Below are positions 50,967 through 56,559 of a stretch of DNA of 56,559 nucleotides, in pieces. The stretch comes from Proteobacteria bacterium CG1_02_64_396 (GTDB lineage Bacteria > Pseudomonadota > MNWR01 > CG1-02-64-396): positions 1 through 56,559 of the forward strand of contig MNWR01000048.1 in the NCBI GenBank assembly GCA_001872725.1, read 5' to 3'. The notes beneath the pieces are model-generated. The model ran no database searches. It was not told the DNA's origin and was given only the letters and a program-made list of their open reading frames with translations. Within the stretch, counting starts at the first letter, position 1. Each line of letters starts with the position of its first letter. The translations under genes and the position numbers were made by a program.

Positions 50967-52127
50967 ATGTCCACCATCGAATACCGTCCCGGTCTTGAGA
51001 AGGTCCCCGCCGTGCAGTCCTCGATCAGCTTTGTTGATGGGGGTAGCGGCATCCTCGAATACCGGGGGATCCCGGTCGAGGTGCTTGCCGAGGAGTCCTC
51101 CTTCCTGGAGGTCGCCTACCTGTTGATCTTCGACCGTTTCCCCCGCGCCGACGAACTGGCCCGCTGGGAGGCCGACATCCTCTACCACCGCAGGATCAAA
51201 TGGCACCTGCGCGACATGGTCAAGTTGCTGCCCAGCACCGGCCATCCGATGGACGCCATTCAGGCGCTGATCGCCGCCACCGGGATGTTCTATCCCATCA
51301 AGGACATCGCTCAGTACAGCCAGGAGCGCTTCGTCTACGAGGCGGCGATCCGCTTGCTTGGCAAGCTCCCCACCCTGGTTGCCACCTTCGCCCGCATGCG
51401 GGTCGGCTACGATCCGGTCCCCCCCCGCGACGACCTCGACCATGCCACCAACTTCTTGTGGATGCTGCTCGAAGAGGATCCCCAACCCGAGGTTGCCAAG
51501 GCGTTCGACGTCAGCCTGATTCTGCACGCCGAACACACCATCAACGCCTCGACCTTTGCAGGGCTAGTCACCGCCTCGACCCTGGCCGATCCCTACACCG
51601 TGGTCTCCGCCGCCATCGGAGCGCTGTCGGGGCCGCTGCACGGCGGAGCCAACGAACGGGTATTGGGGATGCTCAAAGAGATCGGCACCTTGGAAAACGT
51701 CGAGCCCTATCTGGTCGGCAAGCTGGAGCGCAAAGAGAAGATCTGGGGGCTGGGGCACCGGGTCTACAAGGTCAAAGATCCCCGCGCTCGGGTGCTGCAA
51801 AACCTGTTGGAGGGCGCGTTCGAGGCGGGAGGGGGCAAGGATCTGCACTACGCCATCGCCCAAGAGCTGGAGCGGATCGAGGGGACGAGCCTGGGGCAAG
51901 ACAAGGGGGTGTGGCCCAACGTCGATTTCTATTCGGGCATCCTCTACCACAAGATGGGGATCCCCACCGACCTCTTCACTCCGCTGTTCGCCATTGCCCG
52001 TACCGCCGGTTGGCTGGCCCACTGGTACGAGCAGATGCGAGCCAATGTGTTGTTCCGTCCCACCCAGGTTTATACGGGTCGGCACGGGCAGCCCTATGTG
52101 CCGATGGGGGAGCGCAAGCACGTGTAG
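50967..52127 (+). CDS. gltA: citrate synthase
   Basis: Condenses oxaloacetate and acetyl-CoA. The 386-residue protein is of the short, dimeric citrate/2-methylcitrate synthase type. Catalytic regions are HAEHTINASTFAGLV, GPLHGGANERV, WGLGHRVYK and VDFYSGILYHKMGIP. GAGGAGG precedes ATG 50967. The stop codon TAG is part of the first REP element (GTAGGAG from 52124), so the repeat has replaced or supplied the gene end. 2-methylcitrate synthase activity cannot be excluded. Confidence 0.9.
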   Translation: MSTIEYRPGLEKVPAVQSSISFVDGGSGILEYRGIPVEVLAEESSFLEVAYLLIFDRFPRADELARWEADILYHRRIKWHLRDMVKLLPSTGHPMDAIQALIAATGMFYPIKDIAQYSQERFVYEAAIRLLGKLPTLVATFARMRVGYDPVPPRDDLDHATNFLWMLLEEDPQPEVAKAFDVSLILHAEHTINASTFAGLVTASTLADPYTVVSAAIGALSGPLHGGANERVLGMLKEIGTLENVEPYLVGKLERKEKIWGLGHRVYKVKDPRARVLQNLLEGAFEAGGGKDLHYAIAQELERIEGTSLGQDKGVWPNVDFYSGILYHKMGIPTDLFTPLFAIARTAGWLAHWYEQMRANVLFRPTQVYTGRHGQPYVPMGERKHV

Positions 52128-52207
52128 GAGCGCCGCCTCGGCGCGATAGGTTTTGGCTTTTCGGCCGTTCTTGCTCCGATGGATCGCGCCGGGGGCGGCG
52201 CTCCTAC
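52124..52207 (+). repeat. BIME unit A (paired REP elements)
   Basis: The left arm GTAGGAGCGCCGCCTCGGCG continues GCGAT; about 36 bp later comes the inverted arm ending GGCGCTCCTAC. Each arm is itself a small palindrome (GCGCCG/CGGCGC). The first bases contain the citrate synthase stop codon. Confidence 0.92.
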
Positions 52208-52263
52208 GATTGGGGGTGGTTGGGGTTTTGTTTGATGTGCCGCCCCGCCCCCCCCACAGGGCG

Positions 52264-52347
52264 GTAGGAGCGGCTTCCCGGCGCGATAGGTTTTGGTTTT
52301 TTGGCAGTTCTTGCCACCGTTGATCGCGCCGGGGGCGGCGCTCCTAC
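52264..52347 (+). repeat. BIME unit B
   Basis: Left arm GTAGGAGCGGCTTCCCGGCG, continuing CGAT, and an inverted right arm from ATCGCGCCGGGGGCGG to CTCCTAC. The left arm is the GGCTTCC variant, so the two arms are not fully complementary. Confidence 0.92.
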
Positions 52348-52352
52348 GAGTG

Positions 52353-52622
52353 GAGGCGGGGTTGAGCGGTTGGGGTTGTAAGGGATGTGTTCCCCCGTTT
52401 GTGGCGATGTTTCGTGCGATCCCTTTGTTTCATTGGGCCGGTAGGAGCGGCTTCCCGGCGCGATAGGTTTTGGTTTTGTGGTCGTTCTTACCCCGTTGAT
52501 CGCGCCGAGGGCGGCGCTCCTACGAGGGGAGGCGGGGTTGAGCGGTTGGGGTTGTAAGGGATGTGTTCCCCCGTTGGTGGCGATGTTTCGTGCAACCCCT
52601 TCGTTTCATTGGGCCGGTAGGA
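52353..52622 (+). repeat. tandem duplication of a BIME plus linker (period about 177 bp)
   Basis: The 93-bp linker after unit B and that after unit C are nearly identical (both carry GGCGGGGTTGAGCGGTTGGG and TTTCATTGGGCCGGTAGGAG). Units B, C and D begin at 52264, 52441 and 52617. The few differences between copies indicate a recent duplication. Confidence 0.85.
52441..52523 (+). repeat. BIME unit C
   Basis: Left arm of the GGCTTCC variant and an inverted right arm ATCGCGCCGAGGGCGGCGCT continuing CCTAC. It has the same arrangement as unit B, one 177-bp period later. Confidence 0.92.
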
Positions 52623-52700
52623 GCGCCGCCTCGGCGCGATAGGTTTTGGTTTTGTGGCGGTTCTTGCTCCGATGGATCGCGCCGAGGGCGGCGCTCCTAC
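52617..52700 (+). repeat. BIME unit D
   Basis: Left arm of the GCCGCCT variant and a right arm with GCCGAGGGCGGCGCTCC. The arms are almost perfectly complementary over about 24 bp. Confidence 0.92.
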
Positions 52701-52753
52701 GAGTGGGGGTGGTTGGTTTTTGTTTAAGGCGCCGCCCCGCCCCCCGCAGGCCG

Positions 52754-52779
52754 GTAGGAGCGCCGCCTCGGCGCGATAC
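52754..52779 (+). repeat. single REP arm E
   Basis: Only the left arm (GTAGGAGCGCCGCCTCGGCG plus CGATA) is present. Unique sequence leading to the DUF4384 gene replaces the linker and right arm. It marks the left border of the DUF4384/caspase cassette. Confidence 0.88.
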
Positions 52780-52925
52780 GAAGAGGCAACGCGACGCGAT
52801 TCGATCCAGCACCCCGACAAGGTGAGGTGCGATCGTCACACCAAGTCCCCGCATCCTTTCCTCTCCCGGTCATCCTGCCTAACCTGTTGTCATCATCCCC
52901 CCATTCAAGGAAAGAGGACCGCCCT

Positions 52926-53789
52926 ATGCGCCCTACCCCTTTTTGGTTCGCCGTCGCCATCGCCTTGATCGCCCTTCCCGCCTGGGCGGGCTCCTCGACC
53001 ATTGTCGAAGCCGAGGGCAACGCCTGCATGGGCGACGATCTTTCACGCAAGCAGACCGAAACCCAGGCGATGGCCGACGCCAAGCGGGTGGCGGCGGAAT
53101 CGGCGGCGACCTATGTGCGCAGCCAGAGCGAGGTTGAGGACGCCATGCTGACCAAGGATCTGATCGCCGCCTACTCGGCGGCCCAGGTGACGGTCTTGGA
53201 GGTGCTGCAAAAGGGGTGGTATCGCGATCAGGCGGCGGGCGATTGCTTTGGGATGCGGATCCGCACCGAGGTTACCCCCGACGAGGCGGCCATTGCCCGA
53301 GTGGCCAAAAAAGCGGGCGGGGGTGGCATTGACGACCCCACCGCCCCCTTGGCGGTGAAGGTTTGGACCAGTCAAGAGCATTACCGCCCCAGCGAGCGGA
53401 TGCAGATTTACCTCAAGGGCAACAAACCCTTTTATGCGCGGGTGGTGTACCGCCAGGTCGATGGTGCCCAGATTCAGTTGCTTCCCAACCCCTACCGTGG
53501 CGCCAACCATTTTCAGGGCGGGGTGGTGTATGCGATTCCCGGCGACGGTGACCGTTTCGATCTGGATGTTTCCCCCCCCTTCGGCAAGGAGTCGGTATCG
53601 GTCTACGCCAGCACAGCCCCCTTGGGGGAGGTGCCGACCCAGGAGGCGGGCGGAGTCTATGTGGTTGAAGGGGATGTGGGGGTACGCAGTCGAGGGATCA
53701 AGCTGGTCGCATCCCAGGGGGGGAGCCACACGACCCCCGCTGCCGTCGAATTCGCCGAGGAACAGGCCGAGATGACGACCGGGCCGTGA
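52926..53789 (+). CDS. secreted DUF4384-domain protein
   Basis: A 287-residue protein with a signal peptide (about 1-21, cut after PAWA). An N-terminal domain rich in Ala and Glu contains a long helix. A DUF4384-like beta domain follows (about 139-235) with VWTSQEHYRPSERMQIYLKG, YRQVDGAQIQLLPNPY and a GDRFDLDVSPPFGKE segment. DUF4384 often occurs with caspase-like or other effector genes, and here a caspase-FGE gene follows 154 bp later. ATG 52926 is chosen for the signal peptide. Confidence 0.8.
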   Translation: MRPTPFWFAVAIALIALPAWAGSSTIVEAEGNACMGDDLSRKQTETQAMADAKRVAAESAATYVRSQSEVEDAMLTKDLIAAYSAAQVTVLEVLQKGWYRDQAAGDCFGMRIRTEVTPDEAAIARVAKKAGGGGIDDPTAPLAVKVWTSQEHYRPSERMQIYLKGNKPFYARVVYRQVDGAQIQLLPNPYRGANHFQGGVVYAIPGDGDRFDLDVSPPFGKESVSVYASTAPLGEVPTQEAGGVYVVEGDVGVRSRGIKLVASQGGSHTTPAAVEFAEEQAEMTTGP

Positions 53790-53943: not shown

Positions 53944-55866
53944 ATGAAGGCTTTCGCACAATGGCTGGCTGTGGCAATGGTTGCAGCGGGGTTGTCGTCT
54001 TCGGCTTGGGCCGACCGAGGCATCACCATCAGGGGGCAGATGGAGCAGCAAGCGGGGGTCAAGGTGGGGGCCTACCGCGCTCTGGTCATTGGTATCGACG
54101 ATTATGTCGATCCCAACATCCCCGATCTGCAAACCGCAAGCGCCGACGCCAGGGCGGTGGCCGAGTTGCTTAAAAAGAGCTATGGCTTCACCGACGTTAC
54201 CCTGTTGCTCGACCGCCTCGCCGATGGTTCCAGCATCCAAAAGCAGTTGCGCCGCTTGGCCACCACCAGCCGCCCCGACGATTCGGTGCTGATTTACTAC
54301 GCCGGGCACGGCGATCTCGACAGGGTGACTGGCGACGGCTGGTGGATCCCCGCCAGCGCCACGGCGGGCGATTCGTTCACCTACATGGACAACGCGGTCA
54401 TCCAGAAATACCTCAAGGCGATTCCGGCCCGGCATGTGTTGCTGGTTTCCGACAGTTGTTTCTCGGGCACCCTGTTCGGGGCCAGCCGGGCGATGCCCGA
54501 GGTGATCGACGACAAGTACTACGCCGCGATGTTCAAGGAGCGCTCCCGCTGGGGGATGACCTCGGGAAATTTAACGCCGGTGGCCGACGGGAGCTCTGGG
54601 GGGCACTCGCTCTTCGCCGGTCAGTTCATCAAGGCGCTGCAAGGCAACCTCCAGCCCTTTGTGACCCCGCGCGAGATCTACCAACGCATCGCGGCGGTCA
54701 TCAGCAACAACTCCGACCAGGTGCCCCAGGCCAATCCGATTCGCAATGTGGACGACGAGGGGGGAGCCTTCGTCTTCATCCGCAGCGACGGCGTCACCGC
54801 CGCCTCCAGACCGTTCCCTGCCGGGACGGCCGATTCGGGCGGCAATGCGATGGAGTTGGCCTTTTGGAACGCCATTAAAGACAGCGCCGATCCGGCCCAA
54901 TTCAGGGCCTACCTCGACCAATTCCCCAATGGCACTTTCGTTACCCTGGCGCGGCTCAAGGCGGGCAGTGCGCCGCACGTCGAGCCTGCACGAACCACCT
55001 TTGGCCTAACCATCGCCGCCACCCCTTCCGATGCCCGCATCCGCATTCTCAACATCGGCCCCGCGTACCAGCCCGGTATTCAGTTGGAGCCGGGGCGGTA
55101 CCACATCGAGGCGAGCCGTGCGGGGTATTCGACCCACACCGAATGGGTCGAACTGGGTCGCAGCGACATGACTCATGGCATCGCCCTGGATCAAAGGGGC
55201 ATCGAACTACCCGAGATGGTCGTCATCCCCGCCGGCAGCTTCACCATGGGCAGCAACGATGTCGATGACGAGGAAAAGCCGGTGCACACGGTGCAGATTC
55301 GCCGTTTCAAGATGATGACAACCGAGGTGACCCAAGCGTTGTGGGAGGCGGTGATGGGGAGCAATCCCAGCAGCTTCAAGGGGGCGGACCGCCCCGTGGA
55401 GAAGGTAAGTTGGGACGACATTCAAATCTTCATTCGCAAGCTGAACCAACACAGTGGTCAGCATTTTCGGCTGCCGAGCGAGGCGGAGTGGGAGTATGCG
55501 GCGCGGGCGGGAACAACGACGCGGTGGAGTTGGGGGAATAGCGATTCGGTTGCCGGGCAATACGCTTGGTACGACGGTAACAGCGGCGACCAAACCCACC
55601 CCGTGGGGCAAAAAAGCCCCAACGGTTTTGGGTTGTACGACATGCACGGCAATGTTTGGGAGTGGGTCGAGGATCGCTACCACGACAATTACAACGGCGC
55701 CCCCGGCGATGGTTCGGCTTGGACCTCGGGATCTTCGTTAAGCCGTGTGTTGCGCGGCGGCTCCTGGTACAACCTACCGAACAACCTGCGTTCGGCGAAC
55801 CGCTTCAGGGACAATCCCGACTTCCGGAGCACCAACTACGGCTTGCGTCTGGCCCAGGACTTTTAA
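53944..55866 (+). CDS. secreted caspase-like / FGE-fold protein, probable DGR target
   Basis: A 640-residue protein. Signal peptide (1-23), peptidase C14 caspase domain (about 44-280) with the catalytic dyad His122 (YYAGHGD) and Cys172 (SDSCFSGT), a linker with a WNAIKDSADPAQFRAYLDQF repeat-like element, a PEGA-like segment (353-416), and a C-terminal FGE/SUMF1 domain (421-638). The FGE domain lacks the catalytic Cys pair: the site after RGGSW reads YNLPNNLRS. It is thus likely a C-type-lectin-fold binding module, not a formylglycine generator. AGGAG precedes the ATG. The last 40 codons look like a DGR variable region. Confidence 0.88.
   Translation: MKAFAQWLAVAMVAAGLSSSAWADRGITIRGQMEQQAGVKVGAYRALVIGIDDYVDPNIPDLQTASADARAVAELLKKSYGFTDVTLLLDRLADGSSIQKQLRRLATTSRPDDSVLIYYAGHGDLDRVTGDGWWIPASATAGDSFTYMDNAVIQKYLKAIPARHVLLVSDSCFSGTLFGASRAMPEVIDDKYYAAMFKERSRWGMTSGNLTPVADGSSGGHSLFAGQFIKALQGNLQPFVTPREIYQRIAAVISNNSDQVPQANPIRNVDDEGGAFVFIRSDGVTAASRPFPAGTADSGGNAMELAFWNAIKDSADPAQFRAYLDQFPNGTFVTLARLKAGSAPHVEPARTTFGLTIAATPSDARIRILNIGPAYQPGIQLEPGRYHIEASRAGYSTHTEWVELGRSDMTHGIALDQRGIELPEMVVIPAGSFTMGSNDVDDEEKPVHTVQIRRFKMMTTEVTQALWEAVMGSNPSSFKGADRPVEKVSWDDIQIFIRKLNQHSGQHFRLPSEAEWEYAARAGTTTRWSWGNSDSVAGQYAWYDGNSGDQTHPVGQKSPNGFGLYDMHGNVWEWVEDRYHDNYNGAPGDGSAWTSGSSLSRVLRGGSWYNLPNNLRSANRFRDNPDFRSTNYGLRLAQDF
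55744..55863 (+). other. candidate DGR variable region (VR)
   Basis: Codons 601-640 encode RVLRGGSW followed by a pattern that in DGR-diversified FGE proteins is Asn-rich. At positions 609, 621, 623, 627, 629 and 630 the codons are TAC, TTC, GAC, TTC, AGC and ACC. Each can be derived from AAC by changes at A only, with the third base always C. AAC is retained at 610, 613, 614, 619 and 631. This is the pattern left by adenine-directed mutagenic retrohoming. No template repeat is in the window. Confidence 0.55.
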
Positions 55867-55898: not shown

Positions 55899-55924
55899 GT
55901 AGGAGCGCCGCCCTCGGCGCGATG
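55899..55924 (+). repeat. single REP arm F
   Basis: A left arm in the 25-bp form (GTAGGAGCGCCGCCCTCGGC plus GCGAT) 33 bp after the caspase-FGE stop. It has the same orientation as arm E, so the two-gene cassette is bracketed by directly repeated single REPs. Confidence 0.88.
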
Positions 55925-55935
55925 GGTTTTGGATT

Positions 55936-55966
55936 CCGGGCGGCAACGCCGCCCGGCGATTTTTTT
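55936..55966 (+). terminator. hairpin with T run after caspase-FGE gene
   Basis: A perfect 9-bp CCGGGCGGC/GCCGCCCGG stem with loop AAC (55936-55956), then CGA and seven T. It works as a terminator on paper. If this was a DGR, a GC-rich hairpin near the VR could also be the cruciform that supports homing. Confidence 0.75.
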
Positions 55967-55975
55967 GGGGGGGGC

Positions 55976-56083
55976 ATGACGCCGGAGCGCGATACGACGC
56001 CTCAGGCGGTGGATCACTGCCACCGCCTGCTGGCCTGGATCATCCCCAACATCGATGGTTCGTCCGTCTCCCCCCGCAGGCCG
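55976..56083 (+). pseudogene. truncated avd-like (DGR accessory, four-helix-bundle) fragment
   Basis: ATG 55976 encodes 36 codons before REP unit G. Residues 10-27 (QAVDHCHRLLAWIIPNID) resemble the start of Avd/S23-type four-helix-bundle proteins, which usually read YxLLxWIIPxIxKFP. After residue 27 the resemblance stops and BIME linker sequence begins. The frame continues through the repeats to 56224 without meaning. Its place just downstream of the target gene is where avd sits in many DGRs. The match is short and judged by eye. Confidence 0.45.
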
Positions 56084-56166
56084 GTAGGAGCGCCGCCCCG
56101 GCGCGATAGGTTTTGTTTTTTGGCCGTTCTTGCCCCGATGGATCGCGCCGAGGGCGGCGCTCCTAC
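56084..56166 (+). repeat. BIME unit G
   Basis: Left arm GTAGGAGCGCCGCCCCGGCG plus CGAT and an inverted right arm GCGCCGAGGGCGGCGCTCCT plus AC. The central segment is GGTTTTGTTTTTTGGCCGTT-like, as in the left cluster. Confidence 0.92.
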
Positions 56167-56220
56167 GGGTGGGGATGGTTGGTTTTTGTTTAAGGCGCCG
56201 CCCCGCCCCCCCGCAAGGCG

Positions 56221-56303
56221 GTAGGAGCGCCGCCCCGGCGCGATAGGTTTTGTTTTTTGGCCGGTTCTTGCTCCGTTGATCGCGCCGGGGGCGGCGCTCC
56301 TAC
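56221..56303 (+). repeat. BIME unit H
   Basis: The same GCCGCCCC left-arm variant as unit G, with right arm GCGCCGGGGGCGGCGCTCCT plus AC. It is joined to G by a 54-bp linker almost identical to the D-E linker in the left cluster. Confidence 0.92.
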
Positions 56304-56359
56304 GAGTGGGGATGGTTGGGTTTTTGTTTGATGCGCTTCCCGGCCCCCCCCGCAAGGCG

Positions 56360-56442
56360 GTAGGAGCGGCTTCCCGGCGCGATAGGTTTTGGTTTTTGGT
56401 CGTTCTTGCCCCGATGGATCGCGCCGGGGGCGGCGCTCCTAC
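56360..56442 (+). repeat. BIME unit I
   Basis: The GGCTTCC left-arm variant and an inverted right arm ending CTCCTAC at 56442. It is the last unit, 39 bp before the transposase start codon. Confidence 0.92.
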
Positions 56443-56481
56443 CATCATCAATGGAACACCCTCAACGCCATGGAGGCGCCC

Positions 56482-56559
56482 ATGATCCCATCCCCCACCC
56501 GCTGGCGGGGCCACGCCCTGCGCACCTACCGCTTCTCCGAAGCCCACCGCCTCTACCAC
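56482..56559 (+). CDS. REP-associated tyrosine transposase (RAYT), 5' end only
   Basis: The first 26 codons of a gene cut by the window edge. GGAGG lies five bases before ATG 56482. Residues 8-26 (RWRGHALRTYRFSEAHRLYH) fit the N-terminus of IS200/IS605-related RAYT proteins, in which a GHALR-like stretch is followed by a tyrosine/His strand (xYHVT). The catalytic HUH and Tyr lie beyond the window. The dense cluster of GTAG-headed REPs directly upstream is the classic setting for such a gene and is the main support. Confidence 0.6.
   Translation, partial: MIPSPTRWRGHALRTYRFSEAHRLYH

What the first reader, a model, noticed from the sequence alone, without database searches (positions are those of the whole stretch)
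55899..56559. REPtron: BIME array next to a RAYT gene start
Seven inverted REP pairs and two single arms all begin GTAGGAG followed by a small palindrome. The window ends in a frame resembling a RAYT transposase. GTAG-headed palindromes next to a RAYT form the known REP-RAYT system. Here it provides a local source that may still be spreading repeats into neighbouring genes.
Basis: partly seen in the sequence, partly recalled or inferred. Interest (0 to 1): 0.65.

Follow-up and report, generated by a model that had tools for sequence, protein, structure and literature searches.

The report
Repeat-flanked REP transposase, duplicated in genome
The end of this contig is a known kind of bacterial system, a small transposase gene bordered by the hairpin repeats it is thought to copy; unusually, near-identical copies of the gene with its repeats sit at more than one place in this genome.

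Summary
The window has 16 GTAGGAG-headed palindromes: seven heads-out inverted pairs (REPINs) and two single arms. Only three pairs and one single lie in the stated coordinates; four pairs and one single lie at 52124-52777. The window is one whole contig (C48) that ends 78 bp into an ORF. A near-identical locus on C31 carries the complete gene: 150 aa, RAYT family (NF047646, 113 bits against a cut-off of 80), HUH motif and catalytic Tyr present, model closest to the E. coli RAYT-REP complex 4er8. The cognate 25-nt REP occurs 167 times in this genome (reversed control 0; 0 in 99 other genomes of the phylum). So this is a REPtron, a new member of a known system.

What stands out is copy number. 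The RAYT-REPIN unit lies beside different genes on C31 (mrp), C48 (caspase/FGE), C11 (leuS) and C85 (purE), 98.5-100% identical over shared parts: at least two loci, perhaps three. Papers read call RAYTs single-copy and immobile. The full REPIN unit is confined to RAYT loci (14 of 15 matches), so movement as a block is likelier than recombination between pre-scattered REPINs, but transposition is not shown. Spread of REPINs into neighbouring genes is not supported.

The parts
56482..56559 (+). 5' end (26 codons) of a RAYT / TnpA-REP gene, cut by the contig end; an in-frame ATG also at 56470
   Evidence: Identical to the start of the complete 150-aa RAYT at C31:61601-62050; family NF047646, 113.1 bits against cut-off 80, on the C31 copy
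56360..56442 (.). REPIN adjoining the RAYT; its left edge is the 5' limit of homology with the C31 copy (homology from 56354)
   Evidence: ssDNA fold z -4.6
56221..56303 (.). REPIN
   Evidence: ssDNA fold z -7.3
56084..56166 (.). REPIN
   Evidence: ssDNA fold z -7.3
55899..55923 (+). single REP, exact 25-nt consensus, just after the stop of the FGE/caspase gene (55866)
   Evidence: fold shows a 6-bp stem
56070..56442 (.). tandem array of about 137-bp units, each a REPIN plus a spacer of about 55 nt
   Evidence: Tandem Repeats Finder, period 137, 2.7 copies
52124..52207 (.). REPIN of the same unit; the TAG of its GTAG head is the stop codon of the citrate synthase gene
52264..52347 (.). REPIN of the same unit
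52441..52523 (.). REPIN of the same unit
52617..52700 (.). REPIN of the same unit
52754..52777 (+). single REP arm (24-nt form)

Best explanation
It is a REPtron: a gene for a REP-associated tyrosine transposase (RAYT, HUH/Y1 endonuclease) embedded in tandem REPINs made of its cognate GTAG-headed REP hairpins. By analogy with E. coli TnpA-REP, the protein would bind the REP hairpin in single-stranded DNA and cut and rejoin beside it, which seeds REP copies in the genome; tandem arrays then grow locally. In this genome the block REPIN-RAYT-REPIN has itself been duplicated recently to at least one more locus, and the contig ends here because the assembler met that repeat. Shown: the repeats, the protein family and catalytic residues, hairpin covariation, near-identical copies in different gene neighbourhoods. 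Inferred: biochemical activity, and whether the RAYT itself or recombination moved the block.
For: Complete gene on C31: NF047646 113.1 bits against cut-off 80; Pfam Y1_Tnp 32.3 against 23. It aligns to the E. coli RAYT 4er8 with query Tyr125 opposite chain Tyr115. H71, H73 and Y125 are invariant in 44 of 44 aligned RAYTs. AlphaFold model pLDDT 89.3; first PDB match 4er8, TM 0.75, E 3.5e-9. Cognate REP: 167 copies against 0 reversed and 0 in 99 other same-phylum genomes; 29 of those 99 hold some relative of the protein, only 5 at E < 1e-20, best identities 43-47%. Of 80 RAYT relatives in named genomes, 68 have GTRGGAG heads in both flanks against 1 for the reversed head. The REP stem covaries: 92.5% of cells paired, 5 of 6 pairs changed on both sides, covariation score 0.641 against 0.135 shuffled. 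Duplication: C48-C31 203 of 206 nt identical; C31-C85 326 of 327; C31-C11 212 of 212 up to the stop; four different flanking genes.
Against: The RAYT in the window itself is cut after 26 codons, so its remainder rests on the C31, C85 and C11 copies. No activity, excision or empty site could be tested: no same-class genome appeared among the relatives. The assembly has 109 contigs and may be a population genome, so the exact copy number (2 or 3) is open. The full REPIN unit is not dispersed outside the RAYT loci, which speaks against strong ongoing REPIN mobility. Duplicates in three other genomes are tandem, segmental or near contig ends, so recombination can also make RAYT copies.
Confidence: 0.82

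Rival explanations
1. The RAYT block was copied by homologous recombination or gene conversion between REPIN arrays, not by its own transposase; RAYT activity concerns only REPs.
For: The RAYT copies lie among tandem REPIN units of about 137 bp, good substrates for recombination; RAYT duplicates elsewhere are tandem in P. oleovorans (91.9% over 432 nt) or share the neighbouring cheB-like gene in a Sulfurimicrobium MAG.
Against: Recombination needs a matching array already at the target, yet 14 of 15 REPIN-unit matches are on RAYT-bearing contigs. The C31 copy has one REPIN on its 5' side with unrelated DNA directly beyond it.
Confidence: 0.35
2. There is one RAYT locus; the extra copies are assembly chimeras or strain mixture in a metagenome-assembled genome.
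For: Three of the four copies are partial and end at contig ends; host provenance is not told.
Against: The copies differ by substitutions next to unique flanks: 3 of 206 nt C31-C48, 1 of 327 C31-C85, and a different 3' REPIN on C11. Contigs breaking inside a shared gene is what a true repeat does in short-read assembly. Listed contamination is 0.19%. A strain mixture would still mean that the RAYT sits at different places in different strains.
Confidence: 0.15
3. The repeats are ordinary transcription terminators or mRNA-stabilising hairpins, unrelated to the transposase.
For: REPs lie at or just after stop codons (55899 follows the stop at 55866; 52124 overlaps one).
Against: Same head on both sides of the RAYT, near-perfect copies restricted to this genome among 100 searched, and heads flanking 68 of 80 homologous RAYTs.
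Confidence: 0.05

Closest known systems
REP/RAYT (REPtron) of Pseudomonas, Stenotrophomonas and Thauera (PMC2817692, PMC3686654, PMC3733652; passages seen)
   Same: GTAG head, GC-rich palindrome, inverted REP pairs flanking a short HUH/Y1 transposase gene, more than 100 copies genome-wide, arrays with flanking DNA
   Different: PMC2817692 found no multiple copies of a RAYT and PMC3733652 no self-propagation (PMC3686654 infers older, diverged duplications); here near-identical copies lie at two or more loci
E. coli TnpA-REP (structure 4er8)
   Same: Fold (TM 0.75), HUH motif, catalytic Tyr position
   Different: 20% identity in the structural alignment; different REP sequence
REPINs of P. fluorescens SBW25 (PMC3116915; passages seen)
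   Same: Two inverted REPs with a spacer, folding as one long hairpin
   Different: SBW25 REPINs are an abundant genome-wide family (recalled); here the full REPIN unit stays at RAYT loci and single REPs are dispersed
IS200/IS605 elements (IS608, ISDra2)
   Same: Y1 transposase fold, hairpin ends, here also several near-identical copies
   Different: NF033573 (IS200) scores 26.5, below its cut-off of 55; the flanks are REPs that also occur alone

Membership tests
RAYT / TnpA-REP | Match to the curated RAYT family above cut-off | tested here: met
   NF047646 113.1 bits against 80, on the C31 copy
RAYT / TnpA-REP | HUH motif and catalytic Tyr before the NP(L/V)(R/K)xG motif | tested here: met
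   PDHLHW with H71 and H73; Y125 in ARYLVANPLRKG; invariant in 44 of 44; Y125 opposite Tyr115 of 4er8. Naming Tyr115 as the E. coli catalytic residue is recalled
RAYT / TnpA-REP | Gene flanked by GTAG REPs in inverted orientation | tested here: met
   REPIN at C31:61479-61561 upstream and 62063-62145 downstream
RAYT / TnpA-REP | Single-copy gene without signs of mobility (a usual trait in the literature, not strictly defining) | tested here: not met
   Copies or parts on C31, C48, C85 and C11 with 98.5-100% identity
RAYT / TnpA-REP | Strand-specific cleavage of the cognate REP | not testable with these tools
   Needs biochemistry
REP / REPIN | GTAG head, palindrome, high copy number, REPs in inverted pairs | tested here: met
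   167 copies against 0; 18 REPINs against 0; stem covariation
IS200/IS605 insertion sequence | Match to the curated IS200/IS605 transposase model above cut-off | tested here: not met
   NF033573 26.5 bits against 55
IS200/IS605 insertion sequence | Autonomous transposition with defined left and right ends and an empty target site | tested here: inconclusive
   The 5' homology limit lies at the REPIN edge; no empty site available

The most novel reading that the evidence does not exclude
A RAYT has kept or regained self-mobility: REPIN-RAYT-REPIN moves as one unit with REPINs as its ends, so that this genome holds recent dispersed copies of a transposase class described as domesticated, single-copy and immobile.
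Probability: 0.4. Interest if true: 0.65.

Novelty: new member of a known kind. Interest (0 to 1): 0.4.

Why it matters
The REPtron itself is ordinary. RAYTs are used as the model of a domesticated bacterial transposase because they are reported as single-copy and immobile. A genome with near-identical RAYT copies in different neighbourhoods, bounded on the 5' side by a REPIN, gives a place to test whether a RAYT can move its own gene, for which the papers read here report no evidence.

Tried and rejected
Sulfurimicrobium MAG as an independent case of REPIN-bounded RAYT transposition: BLAST between its copies A and B stopped exactly at the REPINs, but alignment showed the upstream cheB-like gene end shared as well, and copies B and C sharing the downstream gene. 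Rejected as clean transposition; segmental duplication fits. The name cheB is my reading of the translations, not a family search.

P. oleovorans and P. mendocina duplicates: real pairs (91.9% and 87.3% over 432 nt) but tandem, or near contig ends, and older. Methyloversatilis MAG (G106): no near-identical pair (72% over 146 nt). Only these four of 21 genomes with two or more matches were compared pairwise, chosen by similar scores.

Plasmid carriage: tblastn of the RAYT in plasmids gave 3 of 72,556 records, all under 60% identity; blastn of the 700-bp REPtron gave none. Rfam on the window: no match. tRNA target: no tRNA in the window.

REP-provided stop codons: of 137 REP heads in the 288 kb examined, 11 have 150 or more open codons before the TAG. 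Only the citrate synthase case was confirmed as a gene; the count was not tested against chance.

Limits: host taxonomy was not established (the named genome scan, may leave the host out; all 99 relatives are only 'same phylum'). DNA searches scored 40 of 156 and 40 of 117 candidates. Place lists show 100 of 206 and 100 of 167 sites. In one search, 39 of 80 loci gave a 25-nt REP chosen by its tail, not by pairing; 41 loci gave none, and 2 duplicates were dropped. One search covered 50 of the 77 locus handles first offered. The census covers only stretches that I fetched, mostly because they had hits. Bertels 2017 (PMC5581495), the main paper on RAYT copy number as cited by others, is not held.

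Full report
Observation. The window is the whole contig C48 of a 2.94-Mb, 109-contig assembly (98.5% complete, 0.19% contamination). It holds 16 GTAGGAG-headed palindromes, in seven heads-out pairs and two singles. Three pairs and one single are in the stated span. The other four pairs and one single are at 52124-52777, directly after a citrate synthase gene. Both arrays are tandem: periods 137 and 176. The three REPINs tested, 83 nt each, fold as single long hairpins when single-stranded (z -7.3, -4.6, -7.3).

The protein. The contig stops 78 bp into the gene. The last 111 bases are identical to C31, which carries the complete ORF. That 150-aa protein passes the curated RAYT model (113.1 bits against 80) and fails the IS200 model (26.5 against 55). 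It aligns to E. coli TnpA-REP 4er8 (E 9.5e-6). The HUH histidines and Tyr125 are invariant in 44 of 44 aligned RAYTs. The AlphaFold model (pLDDT 89.3) has 4er8, a RAYT bound to a REP hairpin, as its first PDB match (TM 0.75). A tree places it beside a Sulfurimicrobium RAYT with moderate support (85/87).

The repeat. The 25-nt REP has 167 copies with up to two mismatches, at least 100 of them exact, against 0 for the reversed control. None of 99 other genomes of the phylum holds it. In 80 related loci from named genomes, the GTRGGAG head occurs in both RAYT flanks in 68, against 1 for the reversed head. Across 38 distinct REPs (the host's and 37 from relatives) the head (but for its third base) and the CGA tail stay constant, while five of six stem pairs change on both sides (92.5% of cells paired; score 0.641 against 0.135 shuffled, and at most 0.172 for slid partners). 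The REPs were chosen by head and tail, so constancy of those is by construction; the stem was not selected. This is the known RAYT-REP co-evolution pattern.

More than one copy. A search with the C31 REPtron found near-identical parts on C48 (5' part), C85 and C11 (3' parts). Identities are 203 of 206 (C31-C48), 326 of 327 (C31-C85) and 212 of 212 up to the stop (C31-C11; beyond the stop C11 carries a different REPIN, 96% overall). The neighbours differ: an Mrp-type NTPase (C31), a caspase/FGE protein (C48), leucyl-tRNA synthetase (C11) and AIR carboxylase PurE (C85). C31 may continue into C85 and C48 into C11, which makes two loci; the C85 substitution makes three possible. Homology between C31 and C48 starts at 56354, six bases before the REP head at 56360; beyond that the DNA is unrelated. 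Further, different RAYT-like genes exist in the genome: C61, C53, C106, C108 and C11:17911.

What is and is not dispersed. The REPIN unit (140-nt query) has 15 matches at E <= 1e-8: seven on C48, three on C85, two on C31, two on C11, and one weak match (77%) on C29. The exact-arm pattern finds 18 REPINs in the genome, 13 of them of this subtype on the same four contigs; the five others (C29 twice, C36, C39, C76) have other inserts. Elsewhere the REP occurs singly or in direct arrays: 38 head-to-tail junctions against 0 in the control, with periods from 39 to about 214 nt and spacers particular to each locus. Such clusters with flanking DNA are described in PMC3733652 (passages seen). The full REPIN therefore appears bound to the RAYT, which speaks against recombination between already scattered REPINs as the way the RAYT spread, and against the idea that this locus now seeds REPINs into other genes.

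Literature. Passages read: PMC2817692 found no multiple copies or relocation of RAYTs; PMC3116915 calls them single-copy and apparently incapable of self-mobilisation; [quoted passage not shown] PMC8266576 says a given gene is in most cases single-copy with no evidence of mobility; PMC8049555 calls them single-copy and vertically inherited. PMC3686654 infers older RAYT duplications with diverged REPs. Searches for duplicated or identical RAYTs in the library (listings only apart from the papers named) showed no report of near-identical dispersed copies; the key paper of Bertels 2017 is not held.

Other genomes. Of 50 named genomes with RAYT relatives, all 50 match and 21 have two or more matches. 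Four were compared in detail because of similar scores. Three hold close pairs: Sulfurimicrobium MAG (about 91-92% in the gene), P. oleovorans DSM 1045 (91.9%, tandem) and P. mendocina EF27 (87.3%). The Sulfurimicrobium copies share flanking genes and look segmental. RAYT duplication is thus not unique to this host, but the host's copies are the most alike of those compared and have different neighbours.

Judgement. The finding is a correct sighting of a known system. Its unusual point is the recent multi-locus RAYT. Whether the RAYT moved itself is open; I give that 0.4.

Noticed in passing
G000:C61:15073-16707 (L010): A second RAYT (49% identical to the first) inside a long array of two other GTAGGAG palindromes (GTAGGAGGCCACCCCGTGGCC and GTAGGAGCGGACCCCGTCCGC) that runs to the contig end: a second REPtron in the same genome.
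   Followed up: partly
G000:C108:20649-21050 (L089): A RAYT homologue with an open frame (183 aa) whose HUH and catalytic Tyr are replaced (PDRRHW, ARKMMLRP): possibly a catalytically dead REP-binding protein or a decaying copy.
   Followed up: no
G000:C53:17655-18479 (L012): A third RAYT (NF047646 192 bits) flanked by a different repeat, GTAGGGTGGATAAGCGCAGCGCATCCACC.
   Followed up: no
G000:C6:14-497, C9:9802-10131, C54:78-346, C17, C36, C82, C103, C108: CRISPR-like head-to-tail arrays of the same REP with 39-46-nt period and locus-specific spacers, up to 12 units.
   Followed up: partly
window 52124-52127: The citrate synthase gene ends on the TAG of a REP's GTAG head: the repeat seems to supply the stop codon.
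   Followed up: partly
window 53944-55866: The gene upstream of the array joins a caspase (C14) domain to an FGE-sulfatase domain; its neighbour at 52902-53786 carries DUF4384.
   Followed up: no
L214 (Pseudomonas oleovorans DSM 1045, contig 44): Two RAYT genes 2.2 kb apart within one long REP array, 91.9% identical over 432 nt: a tandem RAYT duplication in an isolate genome.
   Followed up: partly
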